From Streptomyces sp. BA2 (lineage in GTDB: Bacteria; Actinomycetota; Actinomycetes; Streptomycetales; Streptomycetaceae), in the NCBI RefSeq assembly GCF_009769735.1, contig NZ_WSRO01000002.1, positions 186,001 to 250,000 of the forward strand: a stretch of DNA of 64,000 bases, in the 5' to 3' direction. Below the pieces are notes generated by a model that did no database searches, was not told the origin of the DNA, and saw only the letters and a program-made list of their open reading frames with translations. Below, piece by piece: positions 7,822 through 32,874 of the stretch (within the stretch, counting starts at the first letter, position 1; each line of letters starts with the position of its first letter). The position numbers and the translations under genes were made by a program.

Positions 7822-8925
7822 TCAGGCTGGGCCTTGCGATGTTTCGGCGGCGGTGATGTGGACCTCGGTCGCGCCGAGGACGCGTCCGTTGGCCTGGACC
7901 TCGATGCGGTGCGGGCCGGGGTGGATCGTGCGGACCGAGAGGCACTCGAACCGGTGCCGGCGTGAGAAGCCGACCGCCTGGCCCGCGGGGAGGTCCCGGG
8001 CGGTCAGCTTGAACACCTTGCCCGCCTTGGGGCCGCGAACCCCTTGGTAGTGGACTATGTAGTCGATCGCCGCTCTCGTCGCGTCGGTGGCGTGCAGCGT
8101 GAAGGTGACGGTGGTCGCCTCCCCGATGGAGATGGTGGAGGGCGAGCAGGCGAGGTCCGTGATCTCGATCGGAGCATGGTGATCGAACCCCAGAACCGCG
8201 AGAGCCTCCGGGTGTCCTCGCTTGACGAGTGTCCGCAGGCCGTGGCGTACGACGAAATCGCCCTGTGTGCTGCCGCGCAACCATCGCCGGGCGGTGACGA
8301 GGACGAGGTCGGGGTGGTCCTTGCTGATGTCGTTGAGGTGGTTCGCCACGGAACGGCGCACGTAAAGGGACTCGTCGTTGACGAGAGGCTCCAGGAGCGC
8401 CAGCGCGGGAGCGGGGTCGGCGACGAACCGCGAGAGCTGCGATGCCCAGGGCAGCCGCGGGCGCGTGCCCTCCGAGACGAGCCGCCGAACGTGTTCGTCC
8501 GGGTCGGTGGTCCACGCCCTGAGCTGGTCCATCGTGACCTCGTAGTGGGCTTCGACGAAGGGGCGGATAGCGAACTCGGCGGTGTAGCGGGAGGTGAGCG
8601 CGGCCAGCAGCGGCAGCGCGACGTCGGGCCGGTCCAGCAGCGCCGAGGCGACGTAGGCGTTGACGGGCATGGAAGCCCACCCCGTGAGGCCCCCGCTGTC
8701 GAGGGCACCACGGATCACCCGGCCGGCTTCCTCGGGGGACGTCGGCATCGTCGCCGCGAGGGCACGGGCGATCCAGTCGATACGGGCCTTCAGCTCCAGG
8801 TCACCGATACCGGTGCCCGCGAGCTGCTCGAATGCCGTCCGGTCGAACGAGGCCGAGGCACCGGCGAGGTCATCCGCGAGACGCCCGATGAGCTCCGGCG
8901 ACAGTTCATCTTTGAAATCGGCCAT
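7822..8925 (-). CDS. alkC: AlkC-like DNA alkylation repair protein with C-terminal Ig-like domain
   Basis: A 367-residue protein of the AlkC branch of HEAT-like-repeat DNA glycosylases, which remove positively charged alkylated bases without flipping them out. Helical repeats fill about residues 1-250; the block DESLYVRRSVANHLNDISKDHP (near 180-205) is highly characteristic of this branch. From about 260 to the end lies an immunoglobulin-like domain (SPSTISIGEATTVTFTLHAT onward), known as an extension of AlkC but not of AlkD. The start MADFKDELSPE is the first ATG of the open frame. The gene stands alone between a resolvase fragment (8 bases past its stop) and an IS5 fragment (immediately upstream), so flanking recombination has stopped just short of it. 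The upstream IS fragment may have changed its promoter. Confidence 0.8.
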   Translation of the reverse strand: MADFKDELSPELIGRLADDLAGASASFDRTAFEQLAGTGIGDLELKARIDWIARALAATMPTSPEEAGRVIRGALDSGGLTGWASMPVNAYVASALLDRPDVALPLLAALTSRYTAEFAIRPFVEAHYEVTMDQLRAWTTDPDEHVRRLVSEGTRPRLPWASQLSRFVADPAPALALLEPLVNDESLYVRRSVANHLNDISKDHPDLVLVTARRWLRGSTQGDFVVRHGLRTLVKRGHPEALAVLGFDHHAPIEITDLACSPSTISIGEATTVTFTLHATDATRAAIDYIVHYQGVRGPKAGKVFKLTARDLPAGQAVGFSRRHRFECLSVRTIHPGPHRIEVQANGRVLGATEVHITAAETSQGPA

Positions 8926-17239: not shown

Positions 17240-18724
17240 TCAGCGCTGCAGTGTCAGCAGACCCGGACGGTAGGGCAGGAGGCCGTAGTCACCGCCGGAG
17301 TTGGGGCTGCGTCCCTGGTAGAGCATCTGCAGATTGCACGGATCGACGGTCATGGTCTGATCGGCGCTGGTGCGGAGCAGTTCGCCGTGGCTGATGTCGT
17401 TGGTCCAGGTGGCGCCGCTGTTGGCCTTGCCGGCGAAGGGATTGCTCTCGGTCGCGGCCTGGGGTGTCCATGAGCCGTTCAGACTGGTGGCCGTGAACGA
17501 GCGGAAGTAGCGGCCCTGCGAGCCGATCGCCTCGACAATCATGAGGTAGCGGTTCTGGCCCTGGAGCTTGTAGACCTGCGGGGCTTCGAACAGGTTGTTC
17601 GTCGTATCGCTCATGACCACTGTCGAGTTCGAGCCGAAGCTGCCCGGGAAGTTCCCGATCGGCATACTGGCCCGGTAGATCTTGCCGTTGTCACCGGCGA
17701 AGAACAGGTACATGTTCGACCCGTCGGCGATGAGTGTCTGGTCGATGGGTCCGGTTCCGGAGCCGGGGATGCTTCCGGAGAAGAGCACCTGCTCGGACGA
17801 CCAGCCATTCGGGTTGGTGGGGTCGCTCGAGGTCCGGTAGGAGAAGGCGGTCCCACCCCACTGGTAGGCGAGCACTTAGATGTTCTTCGGCGCGAAGTAG
17901 AAGAGCGTGGGCGCGACAGTGGACGAGGACATCGTGTTCTGGCTGGCCGCGGCCATCTCCGACCAGTTGGTGAACGGGCTGAAGTTCATCGAACCCCACC
18001 TCGTCCCCGTGTCGTGCGTCGTCGCGTAGACGAGTTGCTTGCCGTTGTAGGGGGCGACGGTGAAGTCCTTGACCGAGACCCACCCCGGCTTGGGCTGCGC
18101 CAGCGCGCCCGTTGAGTTCCAGCGGTATGTCGACGGAAGATCGCACGGACCGGGGTTGCCGCCGCCGACCTTGACGAGCTGCCACTGCTGGTTGGTTCCG
18201 CCCCAGTCGTCGTACTGGACGACGTTCGCGTTGTCGGCGGTGGAGCCGCCCTGTACTTCGAGGGCCTTGTTGCTGTGGCGCGAGATGAACCTCACGTAGC
18301 CGTCCGAGCTGTCGGCCAGCCGCCACTGCTGGCTGGTGCCGTTCTGGTCGGCCCACTGAACGATCGACCCGCCGTTGGCGGTGGACCTGTTGTGGACGTC
18401 CAGTACCTTGCCGGAGTGGCGGGACTTGATGCGGTAGTTACCGCCGCCGGAGTCGACGAACTGCCACTGCTGCTGGTTCTGGTCGTTCCTGGTCCACTGG
18501 GTGATGCGGGCGCCGTCGTTGGTCGCCAGATTGTGGACGTCCAGGGCCTTGCCGCTGTTGCGGTTGACCAGCACATACCAGGCGTTGGTGTCGACGGTCG
18601 CCGCGGCCGCGGGCGGGGCACCGAGGAAGGTAGCCACAAGCAGCAGTGGCGCAAGGACGGCGAGCAAGCGCCTCAGGGGGACTAAGCGTCTCAGGTGGAC
18701 CGGGGGCGGATGGCGGAACCACAT
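17240..18724 (-). pseudogene. Secreted GH62 alpha-L-arabinofuranosidase with CBM13, broken by an in-frame stop
   Basis: One continuous frame of 495 codons is interrupted by a single TAA at 17876-17878. The first part (282 residues) has a signal peptide with Arg-rich start and an Ala-rich cleavage region, then a ricin-type CBM13 (about 43-190, QxW repeats such as NQQQWQF and SQQWRLA), then the beginning of a GH62 catalytic domain (CDLPSTYRW, then [11 protein letters not shown]). The second part continues without loss: [20 protein letters not shown] to the stop at 17240. GH62 enzymes have Trp where the stop lies (KNIW-VLAYQW), and TGG to TAA needs two changes. GH62 cleaves arabinose from arabinoxylan. 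ATG 18724 has AAGGAG upstream. Unless the stop is read through or is an assembly error, only a truncated lectin-like protein is secreted. The CBM13 closely resembles that of the esterase at 23411. Confidence 0.85.
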
Positions 18725-18913
18725 CAGAAGGACTCCTTGGGAGGGCGGGAGTTAGGTGACCCCGATGAACCACGGAGCGGCCGCGCCGGGGTTCAGGGAC
18801 GGACGGGATAGGTGTGAAGGCGGCCGCTCATGCCGAAGAGTTGGTGCTCTGGGCGCTCCAGCCGGAGCACTTCGCTGACCATGGGCCTCCGGGGTGGGAA
18901 CGTCGGTTCAATC

Positions 18914-18928
18914 CCGAAAACTTTTCGG
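18914..18928. promoter_or_regulatory. Palindrome CCGAAAAC/TTTTCGG type, candidate xylan-gene operator
   Basis: CCGAAAA (18914-18920) and TTTTCGG (18922-18928) flank one base, a perfect inverted repeat. GAAA-n-TTTC palindromes of this type occur upstream of Streptomyces xylanase genes. It sits about 190 bases upstream of the GH62 start, in the divergent region shared with the cellulase. Confidence 0.5.
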
Positions 18929-19050
18929 AAACTTCTCGAATTCCTTGACGCCATAAGCTAGGAACGTGGGGCCTCCGGGTCAAGACCTGTCGCCGATCTG
19001 TCCACAAACAGCGCCTCCTTTGGGCTTGACCAGCATGTCGGGCCGACCGG

Positions 19051-19067
19051 AAACTCTTCGAAAGTTT
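19051..19067. promoter_or_regulatory. Imperfect palindrome centred on TTCGAA
   Basis: AAACTCTTCGAAAGTTT is palindromic apart from one position on each side of the centre. It resembles the element at 18914-18928 and may bind the same regulator. Confidence 0.35.
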
Positions 19068-19245
19068 GCGGCACAGTTCGCCAGCCCAGGCGTCCCACAG
19101 AGGAGAGAAGTTGAGCACGCAGCGCCCGGCCCCCGCCGTCACATCTTCAACTCCCTTACGAGTCCACACCTGTTGACGACTGCTCTACGCGTCATTACTG
19201 TCCGCCTCGAATCTTCGATACGCCGACCGCTGTTCGAGATTTCGA

Positions 19246-19261
19246 CTGGGAGCGCTCCCAG
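19246..19261. promoter_or_regulatory. CebR-type operator
   Basis: CTGGGAGCGCTCCCAG is a perfect palindrome and contains the exact 14-nt CebR consensus TGGGAGCGCTCCCA. CebR is the LacI-family repressor that responds to cellobiose and cellotriose in Streptomyces. It lies about 280 bases before the GH9 start and just before the small frame at 19278. Confidence 0.88.
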
Positions 19262-19277
19262 AGAGAGAAGGACGATC

Positions 19278-19514
19278 ATGTCGGTGCGACCCCGATCTCC
19301 GAGACGTCGGTCACGGACACTCAAGGGCTCAGCCGCTCAAGGGCTCAGCGGTCGTCGCGGTGTCCAAGGCGACCAACGTCTACAAGGTCACCAGGACAAA
19401 CCAGTACCTGGACACAAGACATCAGCCACGGTCGAGACGGTCCGCGCCGGGGGCGACTACCTCCGCCTGCCCTGGCGCATGGGCCTGCTCCCCCAGACCA
19501 ACTCCCCCTGCTGA
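19278..19514 (+). CDS. Unrecognised 78-codon frame directly after the CebR operator, perhaps a decayed gene
   Basis: The ATG follows an AGAAGGACG ribosome site and stands 17 bases after the CebR operator, the position expected for a cellulose-induced gene. The encoded peptide begins MSVRPRSPRRRSRTLKG, Arg-rich like a signal peptide n-region, but no hydrophobic core follows. I do not recognise the rest. It ends 24 bases before the GH9 start. It could be the stump of a deleted secreted enzyme, a leader peptide, or chance. Confidence 0.3.
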   Translation: MSVRPRSPRRRSRTLKGSAAQGLSGRRGVQGDQRLQGHQDKPVPGHKTSATVETVRAGGDYLRLPWRMGLLPQTNSPC

Positions 19515-19538
19515 CCACCATCTCCACAGGAGCCGCTC

Positions 19539-21689
19539 ATGCCCCCCACCCCTTCGTTACGCCACCCCAGACGCCTCGCCGCCACCCTGCTGACGAGTTC
19601 CCTCCTCGTCGGCGGCCTCCTGACCGCGCCCACCGCGGCAGCCGCCCCCTCCGCGGCGGCGACCTCGGCCGTACGCGTCAACCAGGTCGGCTACCTGCCT
19701 GACGGACCCAAGCGCGCCACCGTGGTCACCACGGCGACGCAGTCGCTCACCTGGCAGTTGCGCGACGCGTCCGGGACGGTGGTCGCCTCCGGTGCGACCG
19801 TCCCACGCGGCGCGGACACCCCCTCCGGGCAGTCCGTCCAGGTGGCCGACTTCTCCTCGTACCGAGGGACCGGATCGGGATACGTCCTGGCGGTGGACGG
19901 CAGTGGCAGCGTGCCCTTCGACATCCGCGCGAACCTGTACGACGCTCTGCGCTCCGATGCGATGGCGTTCTTCTACCACCAGCGCAGCGGCATCCCCATC
20001 GACGCATCCCTGGCGGGATCCGCCTACGCGCGCCCGGCCGGACACCTCGGTGTCGCGCCCAACAAGGGCGACACCTCCGTCCCGTGCCAGGCCACCGTGT
20101 GCGACTACACCCAGGACGTCAGGGGCGGCTGGTACGACGCGGGCGACCACGGCAAGTACGTGGTCAACGGCGGCATTTCCACCTGGCTGATGGTCAACTC
20201 CTTCGAGCGGGCCAAGCGGGCGGGCAAGGACGCGGCGCTCGGCGACTCGACCCTGCGGGTCCCCGAGCGGGACAACGGCGTACCCGACGTCCTGGACGAG
20301 GCGCGCTGGGAGCTCGACTTCCTGATGCGGATGCAGGTGCCCGAGAACAAGCCGTACGCGGGCATGGCGTTCCACAAGATCCATGACGCGGACTGGACCG
20401 GCATGCCGACCCGCCCCGAACAGGACGCTCAGCCCCGCGAGCTGCACCGTCCGTCCACGGCGGCGACCCTCAACCTCGCGGCAGCCGCGGCGCAGTGCGC
20501 CCGCGTCTTCAGGCCCTACGACGCCGCCCTCGCCGACCGCTGCCTGTCGGCCGCCCGCCGGGCCTGGACGGCGGCCAGGGCCAACCCGGCCCTGTACGCG
20601 CCGGATTCGGACAGCACGGGCGGCGGCGCCTACGGCGACACCAAGGTCACCGACGAGTTCTACTGGGCAGCGGCCGAGCTGTATGCCACGACCGGTGACA
20701 GCGACTACCGGGACGCGGTCACCGACTCGTCCTGGCACACTTCCCCAACTGCCTTCTCCGACTACGGGTTCGGCTGGGCGGATACGGCCGCGCTCGGCCG
20801 GCTCACCCTGGCCACAGTCCCCAACGGCCTCCCCGCATCCGACCGGGACCGGGTCAGGGCCTCGGTAACGGCAGCCGCCGACGGCTACCTGTCCCGGATG
20901 GCCGACCAAGGTTACGCGGTGCCCGTCCCGGCGGACGGCTACTTCTGGGGCTCCAACGGCGCGGTCGCAGGCGACGCGATCGTCCTGGCCGTCGCCGGGG
21001 AGCTGACCGGCAACGAGCGCTATCGCACCGGCGCGCTGGAGACAATGGACTACCTGCTGGGCCGCAATGCCATCGGCCAGTCCTACGTATCCGGCTACGG
21101 CGAGAAGTCATCGCGCAACCAGCATCACCGCTTCTGGGCACACCAGTTGGACGCTTCGCTGCCCAATCCTCCGGCGGGGTCCCTGGCGGGCGGGCCCAAC
21201 AGCGCGCTCCAGGACCCAGTGGCGCAGGAGAAGTTGGCCGGTTGTGCGCCCGCCGCCTGCTACATCGACGACATCGGCTCGTACTCCACCAACGAGGTGG
21301 CGGTCAACTGGAACGCCCCGCTGGCCTGGCTCGCCGCCTACGCCGCCGAGCGGAGCTCCACCGGCGAACCCACCGGTGCCTGCGCGGTGACGTACAAGGG
21401 CGACAGCGTCTGGAGCACGGGCTTCACCGCGACGGTCACCGTCAAGAACACGGGCTCGAAATCCATGGACGGCTGGAAGCTGAGCTGGACCTACCCGGCA
21501 GGCCAGCGCGTCACGAACGCCTGGAACGCGACCGTCACCCAGGAGGGCACCGCCGTCGTCGCCCGCAACGCCGACTGGAACCGGACCATCGAACCCGGTG
21601 CGACCGCGAGCTTCGGTGTCCGGGGGACGTACAAAGGGACCAACCCCTCCCCCAGGGCCTTCACGCTCAACGGGCATGCCTGCACCTGA
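19539..21689 (+). CDS. Secreted GH9 endoglucanase with N-terminal Ig-like domain and C-terminal CBM2
   Basis: A 716-residue cellulase. A signal peptide (about 1-36, Ala-rich cleavage region) is followed by the CelD_N Ig-like domain (about 42-130, [12 protein letters not shown]), the GH9 catalytic domain (about 135-605) and a CBM2 (about 615-716, opening [15 protein letters not shown] and ending NGHACT). Catalytic landmarks are [16 protein letters not shown] with the base/nucleophile Asp residues, SRNQHHRFW with the substrate His, and [15 protein letters not shown] with the acid Glu. The enzyme hydrolyses beta-1,4-glucan outside the cell. The ATG at 19539 follows ACAGGAG. The CebR operator at 19246 points to induction by cello-oligosaccharides. 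It is followed by the GH10 gene after about 250 bases. Confidence 0.93.
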
Positions 21690-21873
21690 TCCAGGCTCGG
21701 CCAGACCCGGGCAGACGATCCCGCCCGGGCTCACTCTGCAAGGCCCCCTACGTCACCCGGCGATCGACCGGGTGCTGTCCGTACCGGCCGGCATCGTCCC
21801 GGTTCCATGACCGCGGTGACCGGTGATCCCGTGCTGCCCGGGTTCCGGCCCGGCCCGTCCGTCTGCCAAGTGA

Positions 21874-23379
<1,506 letters not shown>

Positions 23380-23410
23380 TGGCGCCTGCCACCAACGAAA
23401 GCGTGAATCG

Positions 23411-24781
23411 ATGAAGACCTACGGTGCGGCTTCCCCCGCCCCTCTACGAAGACATCGCTGGTGGTCCCGGGTCGCCGCTGTGGTGGCCGCGGCCCTCGCG
23501 ATCGGCCTGCTCGGCGCGGTCAATCCGACCCCCGCCGAGGCGGCGACGGTGGACACCAACGCCTGGTACGTCCTGGTCAATCGCAACAGCGGCAAGGCGC
23601 TGGACGTCCATGACGCGTCCACCGCCGACGGCTCGCGGGTCACCCAGCGGACGCGCAGCGACGGAACCAGCCAGCAGTGGCAGTTCGTGGACTCCGGCGG
23701 TGGCTTCTACCGGCTCAAGGCCCGGCATTCGAGCAAGGTCCTCGACGTGGCCGGCGCCTCGACCGCCGACGGTGCCGCGATCCAGCAGTGGGCCGACCAC
23801 AACGGGGCCAACCAGCAGTTCCGCCTGGCCGACTCCGACGCGGGCCACGTCCGGCTGATCAACCGCAGCAGCGGCAAGGCGGTGGAGGTGCAGGGCGCCT
23901 CCACCACCGACGGCCGCAACGTCGTCCAGTACCGCGACTGGGAGGGCGCCAACCAGCAATGGCAGCTGGTCAAGCTGTCGTCCGGTGGTGGCGGCGGATG
24001 CGGCAGCGCCCCGACTCTGGCGAGCGGTACGCACACGATTCAGAGCAGCGGTAAGAGCCGCAGCTTCACCCTCAGGGTTCCCGCCAATTACGACAACAGC
24101 CACCGCTACCGGCTGATCTTCGCGTTCCACTGGCGCGGCGGAACCGCCGGAGACGTCGCCTCGGGCGGCACGAGCGGGAGCGCCTGGTCCTACTACGGCC
24201 AACAGGAGCAGTCGAACAACAGCGCGATCCTCGTCGCCCCCCAGGGCCTCGGCAACGGCTGGGCCAATTCGGGCGGTGAGGACGTCACCTTCGTCGACGA
24301 CATGATCCGGCGTATCGAGGGCGGCCTCTGCGTCAACCCGGCACAGCGTTTCGCCACGGGATTCAGCTGGGGCGGCGGTATGAGCTACGCACTCGCCTGC
24401 ACCCGGGCGAACGTCTTCAGGGCCGTCGCGGTCATCGCCGGCGGCCAGATCAGCGGGTGCAGCGGCGGCACCCAGCCCATCGCCTACTTCGGAATCCACG
24501 GCATCAGCGACAACGTCCTCACCATCGGGCAAGGACGTTCCCTGCGCGACAAGTTCGTCGCCAACAACGGCTGCACTGCCCAGAACCCGCGCGAGCCCGC
24601 CCCGGGCAGCCGGACGCACATCACCACCACCTACTCGGGCTGCCGTGCCGGGTACCCGGTCCAATGGGCAGCGTTCGACGGAGGCCACATACCCGGCCCG
24701 GTCGACGGCTCCCCCAACGAAAGCGGCATCACCACCTGGACCAAGGCAGAGATCTGGAGGTTCTTCGCACAGTTCCAGTGA
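23411..24781 (+). CDS. Secreted CE1-type esterase (feruloyl/PHB-depolymerase-like) with N-terminal CBM13
   Basis: A 456-residue protein: signal peptide (about 1-44), ricin-type CBM13 (about 45-190) and an esterase domain (about 200-456) of the LpqC/poly(3-hydroxybutyrate) depolymerase-like group that includes feruloyl and acetyl xylan esterases. The nucleophile elbow is GFSWGGGMSY; the His lies in FDGGHIPG near the end. The CBM13 is very like that of the GH62 protein (both open with [20 protein letters not shown]), so the binding module is probably shared by duplication. It follows the xylanase closely and a 15-bp-stem terminator ends the unit. The likely job is removing ferulate or acetate from xylan; substrate specificity is inference. 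Confidence 0.82.
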   Translation: MKTYGAASPAPLRRHRWWSRVAAVVAAALAIGLLGAVNPTPAEAATVDTNAWYVLVNRNSGKALDVHDASTADGSRVTQRTRSDGTSQQWQFVDSGGGFYRLKARHSSKVLDVAGASTADGAAIQQWADHNGANQQFRLADSDAGHVRLINRSSGKAVEVQGASTTDGRNVVQYRDWEGANQQWQLVKLSSGGGGGCGSAPTLASGTHTIQSSGKSRSFTLRVPANYDNSHRYRLIFAFHWRGGTAGDVASGGTSGSAWSYYGQQEQSNNSAILVAPQGLGNGWANSGGEDVTFVDDMIRRIEGGLCVNPAQRFATGFSWGGGMSYALACTRANVFRAVAVIAGGQISGCSGGTQPIAYFGIHGISDNVLTIGQGRSLRDKFVANNGCTAQNPREPAPGSRTHITTTYSGCRAGYPVQWAAFDGGHIPGPVDGSPNESGITTWTKAEIWRFFAQFQ

Positions 24782-24976: not shown

Positions 24977-25846
24977 TTACTCCAGCCGGCCGAAACGGCG
25001 GGCGGCCCACAGCAGCACGCCCGCGCCCAAGAAAGCGAGGACCACGATCTCCACCGCGGCCGGGACCGGCCAGTCGCCCCAGCGCACTTCGGCGGCCGCG
25101 GGACCCCCGGGGACGTACTGCGCGATGCTGCGCCGCAGCACGTCGACGGCGTACGCGAGGGGGTTGACGGCGGTCAACTGGGCGAGCCAGCCCGGCAGGG
25201 CGGTCAGCGGGAAGAACGCCCCGGAGAGGAAGAGCAACGGCATCAGGGCCAGGCTGAGCAGGATGTGGAAGGACTCCACGCTGCGGATACCGAGGGCCAG
25301 CGCCGCCGCCAGCACCGTGAGGACGAACGACGTCAGCACCATCATGGCGAGCAACGTCAGGAGCAGCACGGGGTGATAGGGCAGTCCGACGACGCCCGCG
25401 GTGGCCAGCAGGACCGCGCCCTGGACGGTGGCCTCCGCGGTCCCGCCCAGGCAGCTTCCGCAGAGCAGCGTGGAGCGGCGTACGGGGGCCATCAGGGTCT
25501 CTCGGAGGTAGCCGCTCTCCCGGTCGGAGATCAGGCGCATGCCGACCGTCACCGCCGGGGTCTGCACGGTCATCACCAGCACGCCGGGGAAGAGATAGAC
25601 GCGGTAGTCGCCGCCAACGGCCGTCGCGGGCACCAGGGCTGCCAAGCCTCCCCCGAGGAGAAGCAGGAACAGCAGGGGCTGCACCAGCATCAGCACCGTC
25701 TGCGCGGGCTGGGCGAGCATGCGCAGCAGATCCCGCAGCACGAGGGCATGCACGGCACGCAGTTCCCGTACCAGCGGGGATGCGGCTTCGGAGGCGGGAG
25801 GTGTCGCGGCCGCCGGCGGTACTGAGCGTTCCGCGGGGGCCGTCAC
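24977..25846 (-). CDS. ABC-2 type transporter permease, likely lasso peptide export/immunity
   Basis: A 289-residue ABC-2 type permease with about six hydrophobic segments, the first near 50-70 (VLMLVQPLLFLLLLGGG), and the typical LLFLSGAFFPLTALPGWL block before the last spans. The N-terminal 25 residues are Pro/Ala-rich. The GTG start overlaps the stop of the ATPase gene by 4 bases, so the two are translated together. The pair is divergent from the lasso precursor-cyclase genes and is the natural candidate for export and self-protection. DrrB-type drug exporters have the same layout, so the link to the lasso peptide rests on position. Confidence 0.85.
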   Translation of the reverse strand: MTAPAERSVPPAAATPPASEAASPLVRELRAVHALVLRDLLRMLAQPAQTVLMLVQPLLFLLLLGGGLAALVPATAVGGDYRVYLFPGVLVMTVQTPAVTVGMRLISDRESGYLRETLMAPVRRSTLLCGSCLGGTAEATVQGAVLLATAGVVGLPYHPVLLLTLLAMMVLTSFVLTVLAAALALGIRSVESFHILLSLALMPLLFLSGAFFPLTALPGWLAQLTAVNPLAYAVDVLRRSIAQYVPGGPAAAEVRWGDWPVPAAVEIVVLAFLGAGVLLWAARRFGRLE

Positions 25847-26889
25847 CGGCAGTCCCCGGCACCGGGCGTGTCATGACCGTCGCCGGAGGCCGTGTCGGCG
25901 TGGCCGGGTGGGGGGCCGGTGTGGGTGATGAGGCGGCCGGTGTGGTGGAAGAAGACGTCGTCCAAGGTGGGTTCCGTGAGGGTGATGGCGTGCACGCGGA
26001 TGTCCCGGGCGGCCAGGGCCGCGCACAGCCGGGGAACCTGTTGTGCGCCCGCCGCCACGGCGACGGTCAGGCCGCTCGGCCCTGTGGCCGGCCGCAGGGC
26101 GAGATCCTGCCTCAGGACGACCGCCGCCGCGGCGTCGTCGGCGGTGCGTACACGTACATGGTCGTCGCCGATCGCGGCCTTCAGCGCTGCCGGGGTGCCG
26201 TGGGCGACGACACGGCCCCGGTCGAGGATGGCGAGGCGGTCGCAGTGCTCGGCCTCGTCCAGGTAGTGCGTGGTGACGAAGACGGTGGTGCGCCGGTCGG
26301 CGCGGAGCCGCGCCAGATGGTCCCAGACCTGGACGCGGGCGTGCGGATCGAGGCCGACGGTGGGTTCGTCGAGGAAAAGCACGCCGGGTTCGTGGAGCAG
26401 AGCGCGGGCGATCTCCAGGCGACGGCGCAGCCCTCCGGAGAGTGTCCGTACGCGGTCCCGGCGGCGATCGGTCAGGCCCGTCAGTTCCAGGAGTGCCGCG
26501 CTGCGGGTATGGGCGCGGGCACGGGAAAGGCCGTACAGCCGCGCGTGCAGATACAGGTTGCGTTCCGCGCTGAGGTCCGGGTCGACGGCGCTGTGCTGGA
26601 ACAGCAGGCCGACGCCGCGCCGCACCTGCTGCGGCTGCGTACGGATGTCGGCTCCGGCCACGCGCGCGTGCCCGGAGGTGGGGCGGGCCAGGGCGCAGAG
26701 CATCGCGATGGTGGTGGTCTTGCCCGCGCCGTTGGGCCCGAGGAAGGCGAACGTCTCCCCGGCCCGTACGTGGAGGTCGACCCCGCGGACCGCCTCGGTG
26801 CCGGGATAGTGCTTGGACAGGTCATGGGCGCAGATCGCGTACGGACCCGGGTCACCGGCGTGGCAGCCGGTGCGGTCGGCGCCGGTCAC
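25843..26889 (-). CDS. ABC transporter ATP-binding protein, DrrA-like, likely lasso peptide export
   Basis: A 348-residue ATPase subunit. Walker A is GPNGAGKTTT, the signature is LSGGLRRRLEIARAL, Walker B is VLFLDEPTVGLDP, and the switch His is in VTTHYLDEAEHCDR; a DrrA-type C-terminal extension follows. The GTG at 26889 is chosen because GGAG lies 8 bases upstream and no ATG starts the conserved domain; the open frame runs further up but has no similarity. It is divergent from the lasso precursor, with a 185-base promoter region between, and its stop overlaps the permease start. Together they should form a two-protein exporter (two ATPases, two permeases). Confidence 0.88.
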   Translation of the reverse strand: MTGADRTGCHAGDPGPYAICAHDLSKHYPGTEAVRGVDLHVRAGETFAFLGPNGAGKTTTIAMLCALARPTSGHARVAGADIRTQPQQVRRGVGLLFQHSAVDPDLSAERNLYLHARLYGLSRARAHTRSAALLELTGLTDRRRDRVRTLSGGLRRRLEIARALLHEPGVLFLDEPTVGLDPHARVQVWDHLARLRADRRTTVFVTTHYLDEAEHCDRLAILDRGRVVAHGTPAALKAAIGDDHVRVRTADDAAAAVVLRQDLALRPATGPSGLTVAVAAGAQQVPRLCAALAARDIRVHAITLTEPTLDDVFFHHTGRLITHTGPPPGHADTASGDGHDTPGAGDCR

Positions 26890-27074: not shown

Positions 27075-27191
27075 ATGATGCGCCTGCGTTACACACCTCC
27101 GAAGGTCGTCCGGATCGGACGGGTGGAGAAGCTGACTGGGCAACTGCGTCGGGGCGTTCCCGACTTGCTCGGCCACGGCAACATCATCTGA
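27075..27191 (+). CDS. Lasso peptide precursor (A), predicted 16-residue lassomycin-like core
   Basis: A 38-codon gene with the strong ribosome site AGGAGGAAGG upstream and two adjacent ATG codons (27075, 27078). The leader is canonical: Tyr6-x-x-Pro9 for RRE binding, a branched aliphatic residue at 11, Gly15, and Thr21-Gly22 as the last two leader residues, matching the YxxPxL...G...TG spacing of known precursors such as fusilassin. The predicted core is QLRRGVPDLLGHGNII, with a ring from the Gln1 amine to Asp8 (eight residues) and an eight-residue tail. Leu2, Arg3, Arg4, Asp8, Leu10 and a C-terminal NI match lassomycin (GLRRLFADQLVGRRNI), a ClpC1-targeting lasso peptide. The gene is followed by a hairpin and then C, B1 and B2. 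The expected monoisotopic mass of the lactam without other changes is about 1739.0 Da. Confidence 0.9.
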   Translation: MMRLRYTPPKVVRIGRVEKLTGQLRRGVPDLLGHGNII

Positions 27192-27205
27192 CCGATCTCA
27201 GTACA

Positions 27206-27230
27206 GGGCGGAGCCTGCCCGGCTCCGCCC
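27206..27230 (+). terminator. Hairpin between precursor and cyclase genes
   Basis: GGGCGGAGCC (27206-27215) and its exact complement (27221-27230) enclose a 5-base loop. It lies 15 bases after the precursor stop and could partly end transcription or protect the 3' end of the precursor message, giving more precursor than enzymes. It also makes the ATG at 27231, right at its foot, an unlikely cyclase start. Confidence 0.75.
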
Positions 27231-27257
27231 ATGTCATGGGGCGAGTTCAGGAGCGCG

Positions 27258-28970
27258 ATGGCCGACCAGCACCTCACGGAGTTCCCCGGGTGTTCCGGGC
27301 GGATCACCGCCGGTACGGGCACCGTGGACCACATTTACACACCCTTCGACGCCCGGCAGGCCAACCGCCGTCCCGGCAACCGTGTTTGCCAGTGGACTCC
27401 GGCGGGCACCGCCCCCGCGGCAGCCGTCCCGCAGCCAGTACCCAACGCCGTCCTCGCCCTCGCCGGCCCCTTGCCGTGCGAGCTGACGCCGGGTCTGGCA
27501 GAGCGGGTGATCCGGGACGTCGAGCGCGGGCACTACGCCGTACTCCGGCAACTGCCCCCCGAACTCGCCGGTGCCGTCGTGACGCCCCGGCGAGTCGTCC
27601 TCTTCCGCGGTGTGTGCAGCGCCGACCAGCTCTTCTTCCGTACATCGGAGGGCCTCACGGAGTGGTCGAGCGACCCACGCGATCTGCTCGACGGCCCACC
27701 GGAGTTCGACCGCGAAACATTGTGGCGGGCCTGCCGTGGCGAGGACGTCTTCGTCTTCCCGGGCATGGACCGGCTGCCTCCCGGAGGGCTCGCTGTCGCG
27801 GACGGCTCGTCCGCGCGCGCCGAGACCTATGACGGCATCAGCGCGTTGCCCCTGCCGCAGCGCACCCCGCTGCACCGGTACGCCGACCTCGCTTACGAAC
27901 TGCTGCTGGAGGAGACCCGCCCCTACGCGTCCGCCGGCCGCATCGGTGTCCTGCTCTCCGGAGGCGTCGATTCGGCCGTCGTGCTGGCCGGACTCGCCGA
28001 CCACGGGGCCGATGTGACCGCGTATCACATGCACAGCCCCGACCCCCTCGCCGATGAGCTGCCACGCGCGCGTGAGGTGTGCCGTGCGCTGTCGGTCCCG
28101 CTGGTGACAGTGGACCCGCCCGGTGAGGACGAGTCCTACTTCCCCGTCGGGCACGACCACCCACTGCCCTTCAACCATGTCTGGTTCCGCCGCCTCGACC
28201 TGACGGCCCGCCGGATCGCCGAAGACGGGGTGCGCACGGTACTCAGTGGCCTGGACGGGGATATCGTCTTCGGACCGCTGCGCTATGGCCTGTACGACGT
28301 CGCCGTCGCGGGCGTGCCGTGGCGCGAACGGTGGGCCATGGTCAACGGCCTGCTCAGTTCCCGCTGGGAGCTGAGTCGGATCGTTCGCAGTGTCCGCCCC
28401 GGCCACTCGCTCTACGACGACCCCGAAGCGACCGAGGAGACCGAGCGCGCGAGTGACTTCCTCGTCCCGGTCCCCGGCGCCGGTGCCGAACGCTACGAAC
28501 CGGACTCCGCCGCCCAGGAACACACCCTGAACCTGACGGTCTGGAGGCCCTACGGCATCCACTGCGCCAAGCCCTGGGGCGGCCGGGAGCTGCGCCGACT
28601 TGCAGCCCGGCTCCCGAACGCCTACCGGGTGATCCCCTACGCCGGCCGGACCATCGACAAGCCCGTGCTGCGTCTCGCCGCCGCCCGCCGGGGTGTTCCC
28701 TCCCTCGTGTGGCGGCACTACGGGCGGGACTGGCTCGGTGCGCCGGACGAGACGTGGTGCCTGCGCCATCCGGACGCCGTCGCGGACGTACTCGGCGGTC
28801 CCGACGCACGACTGCCCGCCTTGGGCGTCGTCGATCCGCGCCGCCTGGCCGCGGTCATCACCGACCCGCGCGCGTTGCGACGCAACGCGGAGAACCTGCT
28901 GTGCACGGCCATGGTCGAGTTGTTCCTGCGCGACCTGGCGCACAAGCTCACTCCGGTCCCCAGGGAGTGA
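27258..28970 (+). CDS. Lasso peptide cyclase (C), asparagine synthetase homologue
   Basis: A 570-residue lasso cyclase that would adenylate the Asp8 side chain of the core and close the macrolactam with the N-terminal amine. The synthetase half carries the PP-loop LLSGGVDSAVVLAGL (near 235-250) and the downstream LSGLDGDIVFGP block. The N-terminal half is a degenerate glutaminase fold lacking the catalytic Cys2 of true asparagine synthetases, as in known lasso cyclases. ATG 27258 is preferred because AGGAG lies just upstream and the in-frame ATG at 27231 sits at the foot of a hairpin. It lies directly after the precursor gene and 64 bases before B1. True asparagine synthetase is ruled out by the missing Cys and the neighbours. 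Confidence 0.9.
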   Translation: MADQHLTEFPGCSGRITAGTGTVDHIYTPFDARQANRRPGNRVCQWTPAGTAPAAAVPQPVPNAVLALAGPLPCELTPGLAERVIRDVERGHYAVLRQLPPELAGAVVTPRRVVLFRGVCSADQLFFRTSEGLTEWSSDPRDLLDGPPEFDRETLWRACRGEDVFVFPGMDRLPPGGLAVADGSSARAETYDGISALPLPQRTPLHRYADLAYELLLEETRPYASAGRIGVLLSGGVDSAVVLAGLADHGADVTAYHMHSPDPLADELPRAREVCRALSVPLVTVDPPGEDESYFPVGHDHPLPFNHVWFRRLDLTARRIAEDGVRTVLSGLDGDIVFGPLRYGLYDVAVAGVPWRERWAMVNGLLSSRWELSRIVRSVRPGHSLYDDPEATEETERASDFLVPVPGAGAERYEPDSAAQEHTLNLTVWRPYGIHCAKPWGGRELRRLAARLPNAYRVIPYAGRTIDKPVLRLAAARRGVPSLVWRHYGRDWLGAPDETWCLRHPDAVADVLGGPDARLPALGVVDPRRLAAVITDPRALRRNAENLLCTAMVELFLRDLAHKLTPVPRE

Positions 28971-29034
28971 ACGCCCCGCGCCCATGGACCGATGGGCGGG
29001 TGCCGTGGCCCGTACCCCGCGAGAGGAGACCGAA

Positions 29035-29337
29035 ATGCCGCTGATTCACCTGGCAGAGCAGACAGTCTTTGACCCCGCCGACGGCACGGGAGTCCTCCTG
29101 GACACCGCCGAAGGCGTCTACTTCGAGCTGAACCCCACAGCGACCCTCATGCTGGCGGCGGCCCTGCACTGCGAGACGTACGACGAGGCCGTCCGCGACC
29201 TCACCGCACGCATCGACGCCGCCGACGGCGAACTGCGGGAGGGCATACGGTCGCTCGCCGCCCAGCTCTCCGAGAGCGGTCTCACCGAGCGCGGTCTCAC
29301 AGACCCGGGCGGCAATCAACCAAGGGTTGGGCCATGA
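29035..29337 (+). CDS. Lasso peptide RRE protein (B1), PqqD-like
   Basis: A 100-residue PqqD-like protein, the RiPP recognition element that binds the YxxP part of the leader and presents it to the protease and cyclase. It shows the typical order: a DGTGVLLDTAEGVYFELNPTA strand region, then helices ending with the LREGIRSLAAQL block. The last 15 residues (Thr/Gly/Pro-rich) are extra. ATG 29035 has AGAGGAGA upstream; an open frame extends farther but lies over the end of the cyclase gene. The stop overlaps the start of B2 (ATGA at 29334-29337), so B1 and B2 are translated together. Confidence 0.92.
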   Translation: MPLIHLAEQTVFDPADGTGVLLDTAEGVYFELNPTATLMLAAALHCETYDEAVRDLTARIDAADGELREGIRSLAAQLSESGLTERGLTDPGGNQPRVGP

Positions 29338-29834
29338 GGTCCGCGGCGACCGCGGGCTGGGCCTTCCTGCTCTGGGGCGACGACGCGGCCGGGCCCGTGC
29401 CCCATACGCCCCTCACGGCGCGGCTGGCCGCCGCCACGCACACGGCACGCGCGTTGCGGACCCTGAGAAAGCGCGGCTGGGGAGTGGCGCAGTCCCATCT
29501 GAGGGAACTGCAACTCCCCCAGGGCGCCCACCGCGACCTGCCGGAGGCCACAGCGATCCGCCTCGCCCGCCGCGAACTGCCCCGCTGCCAGCTCGTGGTG
29601 CGGCTACTGGACCCCGACGCGCTCTGCCTGTCCAGGTCGTTCGCACTGGCTGTCCACCTGTCGGCACTCGGCCTTCCGGCCGAGACTGTCATCGCCCGGC
29701 AGCGTTCGTCGATCGGCGCACGGTTCGCCTTCCACTCCTGGACGGAACTGCACGGTGAGGTCCTCAACGACGTCCCGGCCGTCCAGAGCGGCCATACGGT
29801 ACTCCACCGGGTAAGGTGCGCCGCCCTCGTGTGA
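29334..29834 (+). CDS. Lasso peptide leader protease (B2), transglutaminase-like
   Basis: A 166-residue cysteine protease of the transglutaminase-like B2 family, which removes the leader after Thr-Gly. The catalytic Cys is in DALCLSRSFAL (near residue 100) and the His in FAFHSWTELHGE (near 138), with Asp in the following VLND. The first 85 residues are the usual poorly conserved helical region. The ATG overlaps the B1 stop. It is the last recognisable gene of the operon; no methyltransferase, kinase, acetyltransferase or isopeptidase gene follows. Confidence 0.92.
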   Translation: MRSAATAGWAFLLWGDDAAGPVPHTPLTARLAAATHTARALRTLRKRGWGVAQSHLRELQLPQGAHRDLPEATAIRLARRELPRCQLVVRLLDPDALCLSRSFALAVHLSALGLPAETVIARQRSSIGARFAFHSWTELHGEVLNDVPAVQSGHTVLHRVRCAALV

Positions 29835-32037: not shown

Positions 32038-32874
32038 TCAGCGGTGGGGCTGGCGTCGTGTGGCGTGGATGGAACCGAGCAGATTGAGGGACTGGGCGCT
32101 GGGGCTGCCTGGTTCGGCGTGATAGATGACGAGCTGCTGGCCAGGCGCATCGCGTACGTCGAATGCCTGGTAGGTGAGGGTGAGGGGGCCGACGTCCGGG
32201 TGGAGGAAGTGTTTGGCGTCCTGGGTCTTGCCGCGCACGGTGTGGGAGTTCCACAGGCTAGTGAAGTCCGCGCTGTGCTCAGTGAGGGTGCGGACGAGTT
32301 CGCGCAGCCGTGGGTTGTCCGGGGCGAATCCGGTTGCCTCGCGCAGGTTGGCGACGGTGGCCTGTGCTGCCCGGTCCCAGTCCGTGTAGAAGGTGCGGCC
32401 CGCAGGATCGAGGAAGGTCATGCGGGCCAGGTTGTCCGCCGGTTCGAACGGGGCGTAGAGGGCATCGGCCAGGGCGTTGATGGCGAGAAGGTCCAGGGTC
32501 CGGCTCATGACGAACGCTGGAGTGTTCGGGTAGCCGTCCATCAGCTGTCGCAGCGCCGGGCTGACCCGCTCGGCGGCGTGGACGGCGAGCCGGTCGTCCG
32601 ACGTGGCCCCGGCCAGCCGGTACAGGTGCGCGCGGGCGTCCGCGTCGAGGCGCAGCGCGCGGCTGAGCGCGTCGATCACCTGGGGTGAGGGGTTGCGCTC
32701 GCGGCCCTGTTCCAGGCGGGTGTAGTAGTCGGCGTTCACTCCGGCCAGGACGGCGACCTCCTCGCGGCGCAGTCCGGCGACTCTGCGGGCCCCGTAGCTC
32801 GCCATGCCGACGTCCTGCGGCTGCAGACCGGCGCGGCGTGTGCGCAGGAAATCTCCCAGGTGATTGTCGTCCAT
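32038..32874 (-). CDS. MmyB-like XRE-family transcriptional regulator
   Basis: A 278-residue regulator with an N-terminal helix-turn-helix (about 8-75; the GARRVAGLRREEVAVLAGVNADYYTRLEQGRE stretch is hallmark) and a C-terminal MmyB-type PAS-like ligand domain (about 105-270) that in relatives binds fatty acids. It is divergent from an Atu4866-domain gene and two SDR genes, the arrangement typical of this family, whose members often control adjacent short-chain dehydrogenases. A perfect 33-nt palindrome lies in the intergenic region and is the probable operator. A decayed relative lies just downstream. Confidence 0.88.
   Translation of the reverse strand: MDDNHLGDFLRTRRAGLQPQDVGMASYGARRVAGLRREEVAVLAGVNADYYTRLEQGRERNPSPQVIDALSRALRLDADARAHLYRLAGATSDDRLAVHAAERVSPALRQLMDGYPNTPAFVMSRTLDLLAINALADALYAPFEPADNLARMTFLDPAGRTFYTDWDRAAQATVANLREATGFAPDNPRLRELVRTLTEHSADFTSLWNSHTVRGKTQDAKHFLHPDVGPLTLTYQAFDVRDAPGQQLVIYHAEPGSPSAQSLNLLGSIHATRRQPHR

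What the first reader, a model, noticed from the sequence alone, without database searches (positions are those of the whole stretch)
27075..29834. Complete lasso peptide locus with an unannotated-size precursor and a lassomycin-like core
A 38-codon gene precedes a lasso cyclase, RRE protein and protease in the canonical A-C-B1-B2 order. Its leader has the YxxP motif, Gly and the terminal Thr-Gly at the spacing seen in known precursors. The predicted core QLRRGVPDLLGHGNII shares Leu2, Arg3, Arg4, Asp8, Leu10 and a C-terminal Asn-Ile with lassomycin (recalled as GLRRLFADQLVGRRNI), which kills mycobacteria through ClpC1. The exact core is not one I know. Loss of the two tail arginines of lassomycin and its replacement by His-Gly would be expected to alter target binding.
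Basis: partly seen in the sequence, partly recalled or inferred. Interest (0 to 1): 0.95.

Follow-up and report, generated by a model that had tools for sequence, protein, structure and literature searches.

The report
Lasso peptide cluster with glutamine start
A Streptomyces gene cluster that very probably makes a small knotted (lasso) peptide of a conserved but apparently unstudied family; its sequence looks like a patchwork of three known lasso peptides, two of which act on mycobacteria, but its own activity is unknown.

Summary
In detail: a 37/38-codon precursor (27075/27078-27191, +) precedes a lasso cyclase, an RRE protein and a cysteine protease; mass 1738.995 Da. Thirteen precursors read here share the QLRxG...D8...GN core.

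'Lassomycin-like' is only partly right. In register the core is nearest to lagmysin (6 of 16 identical), then lariatin A: G11-H12-x-N14-x-I16 sits exactly where lariatin has it, His12 and Asn14 being its plugs. Lassomycin fits well only with a gap; Arg4 is kept in 10 of 13; no methyltransferase was found among 24 neighbouring ORFs scanned. Nor is it a lagmysin cluster: lagmysin's cyclase aligns to this one over only 115 residues (33%), five other cyclases full length at 44-47%.

One cluster with a lagmysin-lineage cyclase carries the same GN(L/I)L tail and the sister-type exporter (71%).

Best view: a new class II lasso family member in Streptomyces; activity untested.

The parts
27075..27191 (+). 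Precursor gene A (38 codons; the second ATG at 27078 gives 37): leader MMRLRYTPPKVVRIGRVEKLTG, core QLRRGVPDLLGHGNII
   Evidence: lasso_leader_L3 20.5 vs 19; third-position excess; 13 precursors
27258..28970 (+). Lasso cyclase C (Asn_synthase fold, SGGVDS loop); open frame from 27231
   Evidence: PF00733 60.2 bits; database form 570 aa
29035..29337 (+). B1, RRE (PqqD-like) protein expected to bind the leader
   Evidence: weak match to TfuB1 structure 6jx3, E 0.0085
29334..29834 (+). B2, cysteine leader peptidase; Cys (DALCLSRS), His (FHSW) and Asp (LND), recalled as the catalytic triad, kept in all 14 loci aligned; start overlaps B1 stop (ATGA)
25843..26889 (-). DrrA-type ABC ATPase, likely GTG start at 26889 (open frame to 27096), divergent from A; proposed exporter/self-protection
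   Evidence: TIGR01188 318.7 bits (cut-off 312.45); (80-89% identical in L002, L003, L046)
24977..25846 (-). DrrB-type ABC-2 permease, start overlapping the DrrA stop (GTGA)
   Evidence: 79-89% identical in L002, L003, L046
26966..26994 (+). Promoter-like block TTGACG-N17-CAAGCT before A; the first half is the same in the four DrrAB-clade loci, the second half varies (CAGGCT, CAGCAT, CAGTCT)
   Evidence: function inferred

Best explanation
A class II lasso peptide cluster. B1 binds the leader (YTPP motif to Thr-Gly), B2 cuts after Gly22, and C joins the freed amino group of Gln1 to the side chain of Asp8, giving an 8-residue ring. The tail threads the ring and is held by His12 and Asn14 in the way known for lariatin A, with a short loop between. 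DrrA/DrrB exports the product and may protect the producer; in this clade it stands in for the one-chain ABC exporter of sister clusters. The most likely role is an antibiotic-type weapon of narrow range, mycobacteria or other actinomycetes being the first guess. Shown: genes, families, conservation, exporter difference. Inferred: maturation, ring, threading, export, activity.
For: Enzyme families; Cys, His, Asp of B2 in 14 of 14 loci; Q1, L2, R3, G5, D8, G13, N14 invariant in 13 of 13 precursors read; G11-H12-x-N14-x-I16 in register with lariatin A, whose His12 and Asn14 trap the tail and whose Gly11 and Asn14 are needed for activity (PMC4960549, abstract and passages); DrrAB present in 4 of 4 members of the clade; one-chain exporter directly after B2 in 5 of 5 sister loci and, at 48-50%, in 2 of 5 outgroup loci; both exporter groups are single clades of the cyclase tree, support 100/99.
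Against: No expression, mass or structure data. Gln1 is absent from all 62 tabulated lasso peptides, and N-terminal Gln can turn into pyroglutamate (general knowledge), which would compete with ring closure. Lariatin's Tyr6 (aromatic needed) is Val here and its Lys17-Pro18 end is missing; C-terminally cut lariatin variants were not made properly or were weaker. G11 is G in 10 of 13, H12 is H in 12 of 13. B1 and B2 fall below their NCBIfam cut-offs. Short cores match by chance easily: astexin-1 also reaches a shuffle P of 0.0005 with a score of only 7.
Confidence: 0.85

Rival explanations
1. The product is a true lassomycin analogue: a ClpC1-binding anti-mycobacterial lasso peptide in which the LRR ring face makes the contact.
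For: L2, R3, R4, D8, L10 identical in position; G-x-x-N-I tail if one gap is allowed (gapped score 24, second of 56, shuffle P 0.0045); L2, R3, D8 invariant in 13.
Against: In-register score 8, shuffle P 0.06; Arg4 in 10 of 13; tail basic residues of lassomycin absent here; no O-methyltransferase among the 24 other ORFs scanned. Lassomycin's own cyclase was not compared.
Confidence: 0.12
2. The product is a lagmysin-type lasso peptide with unrelated, perhaps non-antibiotic, activity; the likeness to lariatin and lassomycin is chance in short peptides.
For: Highest core score of 56 (28 in register, shuffle P 0.0005; 29 gapped, P 0.003).
Against: The cyclase of a cluster with the exact lagmysin core (L057) aligns to the window's cyclase over only 115 residues (33%, E 5.5e-5), while five non-family Streptomyces cyclases align full length at 44-47%; lagmysin's cyclase instead groups with those of L060 and L063 (41-45%). 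Ring residues 1-4 differ wholly; N14, invariant here, is Ser in lagmysin. S. rimosus has a cyclase 79% identical to this one and two listed lasso clusters, one 80% similar to lagmysin and one 50% to moomysin (PMC9045324 table passage); which of them it belongs to is not known.
Confidence: 0.15
3. The cluster is decayed or silent and makes nothing.
For: No expression data; family scores of B1 and B2 are low.
Against: Frames are open with the B2 residues kept; mostly third-position differences between relatives; promoter-like block partly conserved in four loci.
Confidence: 0.07

Closest known systems
Lagmysin (LAGQGSPDLLGGHSLL)
   Same: 16 residues, D8 ring; G5, P7, D8, L9, L10, G11 identical; found here in a Streptomyces-family genome (L057)
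   Different: Ring start LAGQ vs QLRR; tail GHSLL vs HGNII; starts with Leu; cyclase of another lineage
Lariatin A (GSQLVYREWVGHSNVIKP)
   Same: Eight-residue ring; G11, H12, N14, I16 in register; His12 and Asn14 are its plugs
   Different: Ring closed by Glu8 from Gly1; Tyr6, Trp9 and Lys17-Pro18 absent here; its enzymes were not compared
Lassomycin (GLRRLFADQLVGRRNI)
   Same: 16 residues, L2-R3-R4, D8, L10; G-x-x-N-I tail if one gap is allowed
   Different: Gly1; two tail Arg; C-terminal methyl ester and its methyltransferase, none found here; Arg4 not conserved in this family; its enzymes were not compared
   Same: Same leader type and QLRRG core, same C, B1, B2
   Different: One-chain ABC exporter right after B2 instead of divergent DrrA/DrrB
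   Same: From the Asp on, the tail has the same spacing and GN(L/I)L end; exporter 71% identical to that of the sister loci
   Different: Cyclase of the lagmysin lineage; Asp would be residue 10, a ring two residues longer

Membership tests
Lasso peptide clusters (class II, split B1/B2) | Leader with Thr at the last but one place and YxxP motif, Asp/Glu at core position 7-9 | tested here: met
   YTPP, Thr21-Gly22, Asp8; lasso_leader_L3 20.5 bits vs 19
Lasso peptide clusters (class II, split B1/B2) | RRE protein, cysteine leader peptidase and asparagine-synthetase-like cyclase together | tested here: met
   Pfam PqqD, Transglut_core3 and Asn_synthase above cut-off; NCBIfam B1 and B2 models matched but below cut-off
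Lasso peptide clusters (class II, split B1/B2) | No cysteines in the core | tested here: met
   sequence
Lasso peptide clusters (class II, split B1/B2) | Threaded lariat product | not testable with these tools
   needs MS and NMR
Lassomycin-like | C-terminal carboxyl methyltransferase in the cluster (LasF, StspM, SakeM) | tested here: not met
   none among 24 ORFs of the window other than A, C, B1, B2 scanned with Pfam; other window ORFs were not scanned
Lassomycin-like | Arg-Arg in ring and in tail | tested here: not met
   ring Arg3-Arg4 present here, Arg4 in 10 of 13; tail is His-Gly
Lassomycin-like | Acts on ClpC1 | not testable with these tools
   -
Lariatin-like | Gly11, His12, Asn14 in register | tested here: met
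   in the family G11 10 of 13, H12 12 of 13, N14 13 of 13
Lariatin-like | Aromatic residue 6 and basic residue 17, needed or favourable for activity | tested here: not met
   Val6, core ends at 16
Lariatin-like | Enzymes related to the lariatin enzymes | not tested
   lariatin genes were not fetched
Lagmysin-like | GxPDLLG core at positions 5-11 | tested here: met
Lagmysin-like | Cyclase groups with lagmysin's cyclase | tested here: not met
   33% over 115 residues only, against 44-47% full length to five non-family cyclases

The most novel reading that the evidence does not exclude
A lasso family whose ring is always closed from an N-terminal glutamine (Gln1-Asp8), a ring-forming residue absent from the 62 tabulated lasso peptides, with a lariatin-type His12/Asn14 plug on a lassomycin-type LRR ring. 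Its tail occurs with two cyclase lineages (this one and L060's) and with two exporter kinds, so tails, cyclases and exporters of lasso clusters would be traded as modules; possibly a new narrow-spectrum anti-mycobacterial scaffold.
Probability: 0.3. Interest if true: 0.55.

Novelty: new member of a known kind. Interest (0 to 1): 0.37.

Why it matters
If matured as predicted, it adds glutamine to the ring-starting residues, gives natural variants (11 distinct cores) for structure-activity work, and joins the plug of lariatin with the ring face of lassomycin, so that one could test which part carries anti-mycobacterial activity. The exporter exchange with an unchanged core is a clean case for asking what a lasso exporter recognises.

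Tried and rejected
Considered and rejected: chance small ORF (conservation and codon-position pattern); lassomycin as the single closest relative; a lagmysin cluster (core nearest, but cyclase of another lineage); plasmid-borne relatives (no cyclase match at E 1e-5 in 72,556 plasmid records); a viral copy (one exact 20-base pattern of the core gene, 0 in viral contigs; a very narrow test); spread outside the genus at E 1e-100 (2 of 394 genomes of the class, own and one relative of the same genus). Solved-structure searches gave only a weak TfuB1 match for B1, one very weak match for C and unrelated weak matches for B2.

Mistakes found and mended: the DrrA query was cut in the wrong frame; one search repeated it. 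The precursor-profile search of 394 family genomes lists 131 genomes at E up to 0.1 (its list of matches is cut): four places, own included, are strong (E < 1e-20). Of the weak ones, the frames of eight loci were printed (nine asked for; L023 gave nothing) and the surroundings of eight places were fetched; G519, G383, G164, G687 and G525 have lasso precursors of other kinds and G515 a class I type. I did not read the remainder; many lie inside long frames.

Dropped rows: one search used 56 of the 62 tabulated cores; lariatin B, lariocidin B, moomysin (same letters as cattlecin), siamycin I and II and specialicin were left out, disulfide marks were removed, and astexin-1's printed 'O' was typed as Q. 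The gapped optimum for lariatin A (23) is not the in-register alignment.
Full report
The window lies in a 10.04 Mb genome (contig C2, 9.44 Mb, window at 186001-250000). The genus is inferred to be Streptomyces: the two named relatives of the cyclase are Streptomyces, and genome G086, given as 'same genus', has a contig of the same length and the same precursor core as the named S. violens contig. At 27075 a frame of 38 codons reads MMRLRYTPPKVVRIGRVEKLTG-QLRRGVPDLLGHGNII and matches NCBIfam lasso_leader_L3 above cut-off. After it come C (open frame 27231-28970, likely start 27258), B1 (29035-29337) and B2 (29334-29834), with Pfam Asn_synthase, PqqD and Transglut_core3 above cut-off. The NCBIfam models for B1 and B2 match below their cut-offs (50.9 of 70; 32.3 of 33). 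B2 keeps Cys, His and Asp in all 14 loci aligned. The cyclised core weighs 1738.995 Da.

Relatives. A scan of named genomes gave two loci, S. ochraceiscleroticus (cyclase 83%) and S. violens (77%). In 392 genomes of the genus, 13 have a cyclase at E up to 1e-60; 8 of these, own included, carry a QLRxG core and five (L011-L015) do not. In 394 genomes of the class two reach E 1e-100, own and one of the same genus. A protein search with one relative's precursor found four more precursors, one named by NCBI as a lasso leader peptide protein of Streptomyces sp. NPDC017529. The cyclase search lists 74 proteins at E up to 1e-30, the window's own among them (only the 7994 candidates sharing most words were scored), including S. 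rimosus (79%), S. purpurogeneiscleroticus (83%) and S. ferrugineus (66%).

The family's core. In 13 precursors (11 distinct cores) Q1, L2, R3, G5, D8, G13 and N14 never vary; R4 is R in 10, G11 is G in 10, H12 is H in 12, P7 is P in 12; residue 16 takes the most kinds (L 9; I, A, W, F once each). Nine aligned genes differ at codon positions 1/2/3 in 269/121/572 pairwise cases, the mark of a translated gene. The window's exact core was seen in no other precursor read. No paper of the held library contains any of six 8-letter fragments, QLRRGVPD among them; supplements were not searched, and most subscription papers are not held.

Which known lasso peptide is nearest in letters? Table 1 of PMC12427821 (section read) gives lassomycin GLRRLFADQLVGRRNI, lagmysin LAGQGSPDLLGGHSLL and lariatin A GSQLVYREWVGHSNVIKP. 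Against 56 of its 62 cores the ungapped score is 28 for lagmysin, 17 for lariatin A, 8 for lassomycin and 7 or less for the rest; with gaps 29, 23 and 24, the next being caulosegnin II with 20. Shuffles that keep residues 1 and 8 reach the ungapped score in a fraction 0.0005, 0.0005 and 0.0625 of 2000 cases, and the gapped score in 0.003, 0.0005 and 0.0045. Such scores are weak evidence one by one: astexin-1 also gets 0.0005 ungapped with a score of 7. The in-register lariatin match is the informative one: G11, H12, N14 and I16 coincide, and in lariatin A His12 and Asn14 trap the tail while Gly11 and Asn14 are needed for activity (PMC4960549, abstract and passages). Against full equivalence, lariatin's aromatic residue 6 and Lys17 are absent here, and C-terminal shortening spoiled lariatin. 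Reviews say that the lassomycin cluster is markedly similar to lariatin's except for an O-methyltransferase (PMC8498205 passages; see also PMC9266682 passages) and that synthetic unthreaded lassomycin is inactive. No methyltransferase was found among 24 other ORFs of the window scanned with Pfam: DrrA, DrrB, the regulator at 32038, the esterase at 23411 and 20 more between 3578 and 49796, one of which (7822-8925) had no hit. (The cyclase itself weakly matches a domain named tRNA_Me_trans, which I take for its ATP-binding fold.) Other ORFs were not scanned.

Is it a lagmysin cluster? The profile search had brought in lagmysin itself: L035/L057 encodes MTMAYERPTLTKVGDFQKVTG-LAGQGSPDLLGGHSLL, and three further loci a one-letter variant. 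The lagmysin cyclase (L057, Asn_synthase 130 bits) aligns to the window's over 115 residues only (33%, E 5.5e-5), while the five non-family cyclases L052-L056 align full length at 44-47%. Lagmysin's cyclase instead is 41-45% identical to those of L060 and L063. So the lagmysin-like core does not go with lagmysin-like enzymes; lariatin's and lassomycin's enzymes were not fetched.

Gln1. None of the 62 tabulated peptides begins with Gln (the script's 56: G 38, S 7, C 4, A 3, L 3, W 1). The metanodin paper (PMC12670498 passages) reports Asn as a new first residue, lists Gly, Cys, Ser and Ala as examples of observed ones, and mentions a Gln at that place in a neighbouring, predicted precursor. So a matured Gln1 ring would be unusual, yet Gln has been seen in predictions. 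That the family never varies there suggests the cyclase needs it; this is inference.

Exporter. Upstream and divergent lie DrrA (25843-26889) and DrrB (24977-25846), 79-89% identical in the three nearest relatives and at the same place. In five sister loci (12.7-16 kb fetched) DrrB is not found, DrrA matches only the exporter's own ATPase part, and a one-chain ABC exporter (ABC_membrane plus ABC_tran) starts at the end of B2. A 48-50% relative of it lies in outgroup loci L055 and L056 and 46-71% relatives in L057, L060, L062 and L063 of the eight stretches. The two exporter groups are each one clade of the cyclase tree, support 100/99. The simplest story is that DrrAB replaced the one-chain exporter in the window's clade. 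DrrA beside lasso genes is not unique: in L064 a DrrA-like gene (54%) lies near a class I type precursor with four cysteines. A search joining lasso peptide, DrrA, ABC transporter and immunity listed one unrelated review (listing only).

An unexpected link. L060 (precursor read) has a lagmysin-lineage cyclase but a putative core HFRKGKGPPDILFKGNLL whose part from Asp on has the spacing and the GN(L/I)L end of this family, and an exporter 71% identical to that of the sister loci. One case cannot prove it, but tail and exporter seem to have travelled together between cyclase lineages.

Verdict. A real, intact lasso cluster and a new member of a known kind, in a conserved and apparently unstudied Streptomyces family. 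'Lassomycin-like' should be replaced by 'own enzyme lineage, lagmysin-like middle, lariatin-type plug, LRR ring from Gln1'. Anti-mycobacterial action is a fair guess and no more.

Noticed in passing
17240-18724 (-): A GH62 arabinofuranosidase with ricin-type lectin domain is split into two adjoining frames (profile 1-89 and 91-272); either a pseudogene or a sequencing slip.
   Followed up: no
17240-24781: A run of plant-polysaccharide genes (GH62, GH9 with CBM2, GH10 with ricin lectin, a PHB-depolymerase-like esterase with ricin lectins) abuts the lasso cluster.
   Followed up: no
L047-L051 versus window, L002, L003, L046: Exporter exchange beside an unchanged lasso core.
   Followed up: yes
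L060 (G519:C1:2624000-2640000): Lasso cluster with putative core HFRKGKGPPDILFKGNLL: Asp at residue 10 would make a ten-residue ring, longer than the 7-9 given in PMC4960549; tail and exporter resemble the window's family, cyclase does not.
   Followed up: partly
   Followed up: no
L064 (G515:C66): Putative class I lasso precursor ending CLPSGDCPDFLGCGRALWCI with a DrrA-like gene (54%) nearby.
   Followed up: no
L012, L013 (upstream of cyclase): Related cyclases (45-48%) sit by precursors whose leaders end in Thr-Ala, with putative cores beginning HGGILLPD and MGGLLVHD.
   Followed up: no
L014, L015: A further related group has putative cores WLTIGQTFDNVITTHRRL(S/R), starting with Trp.
   Followed up: no
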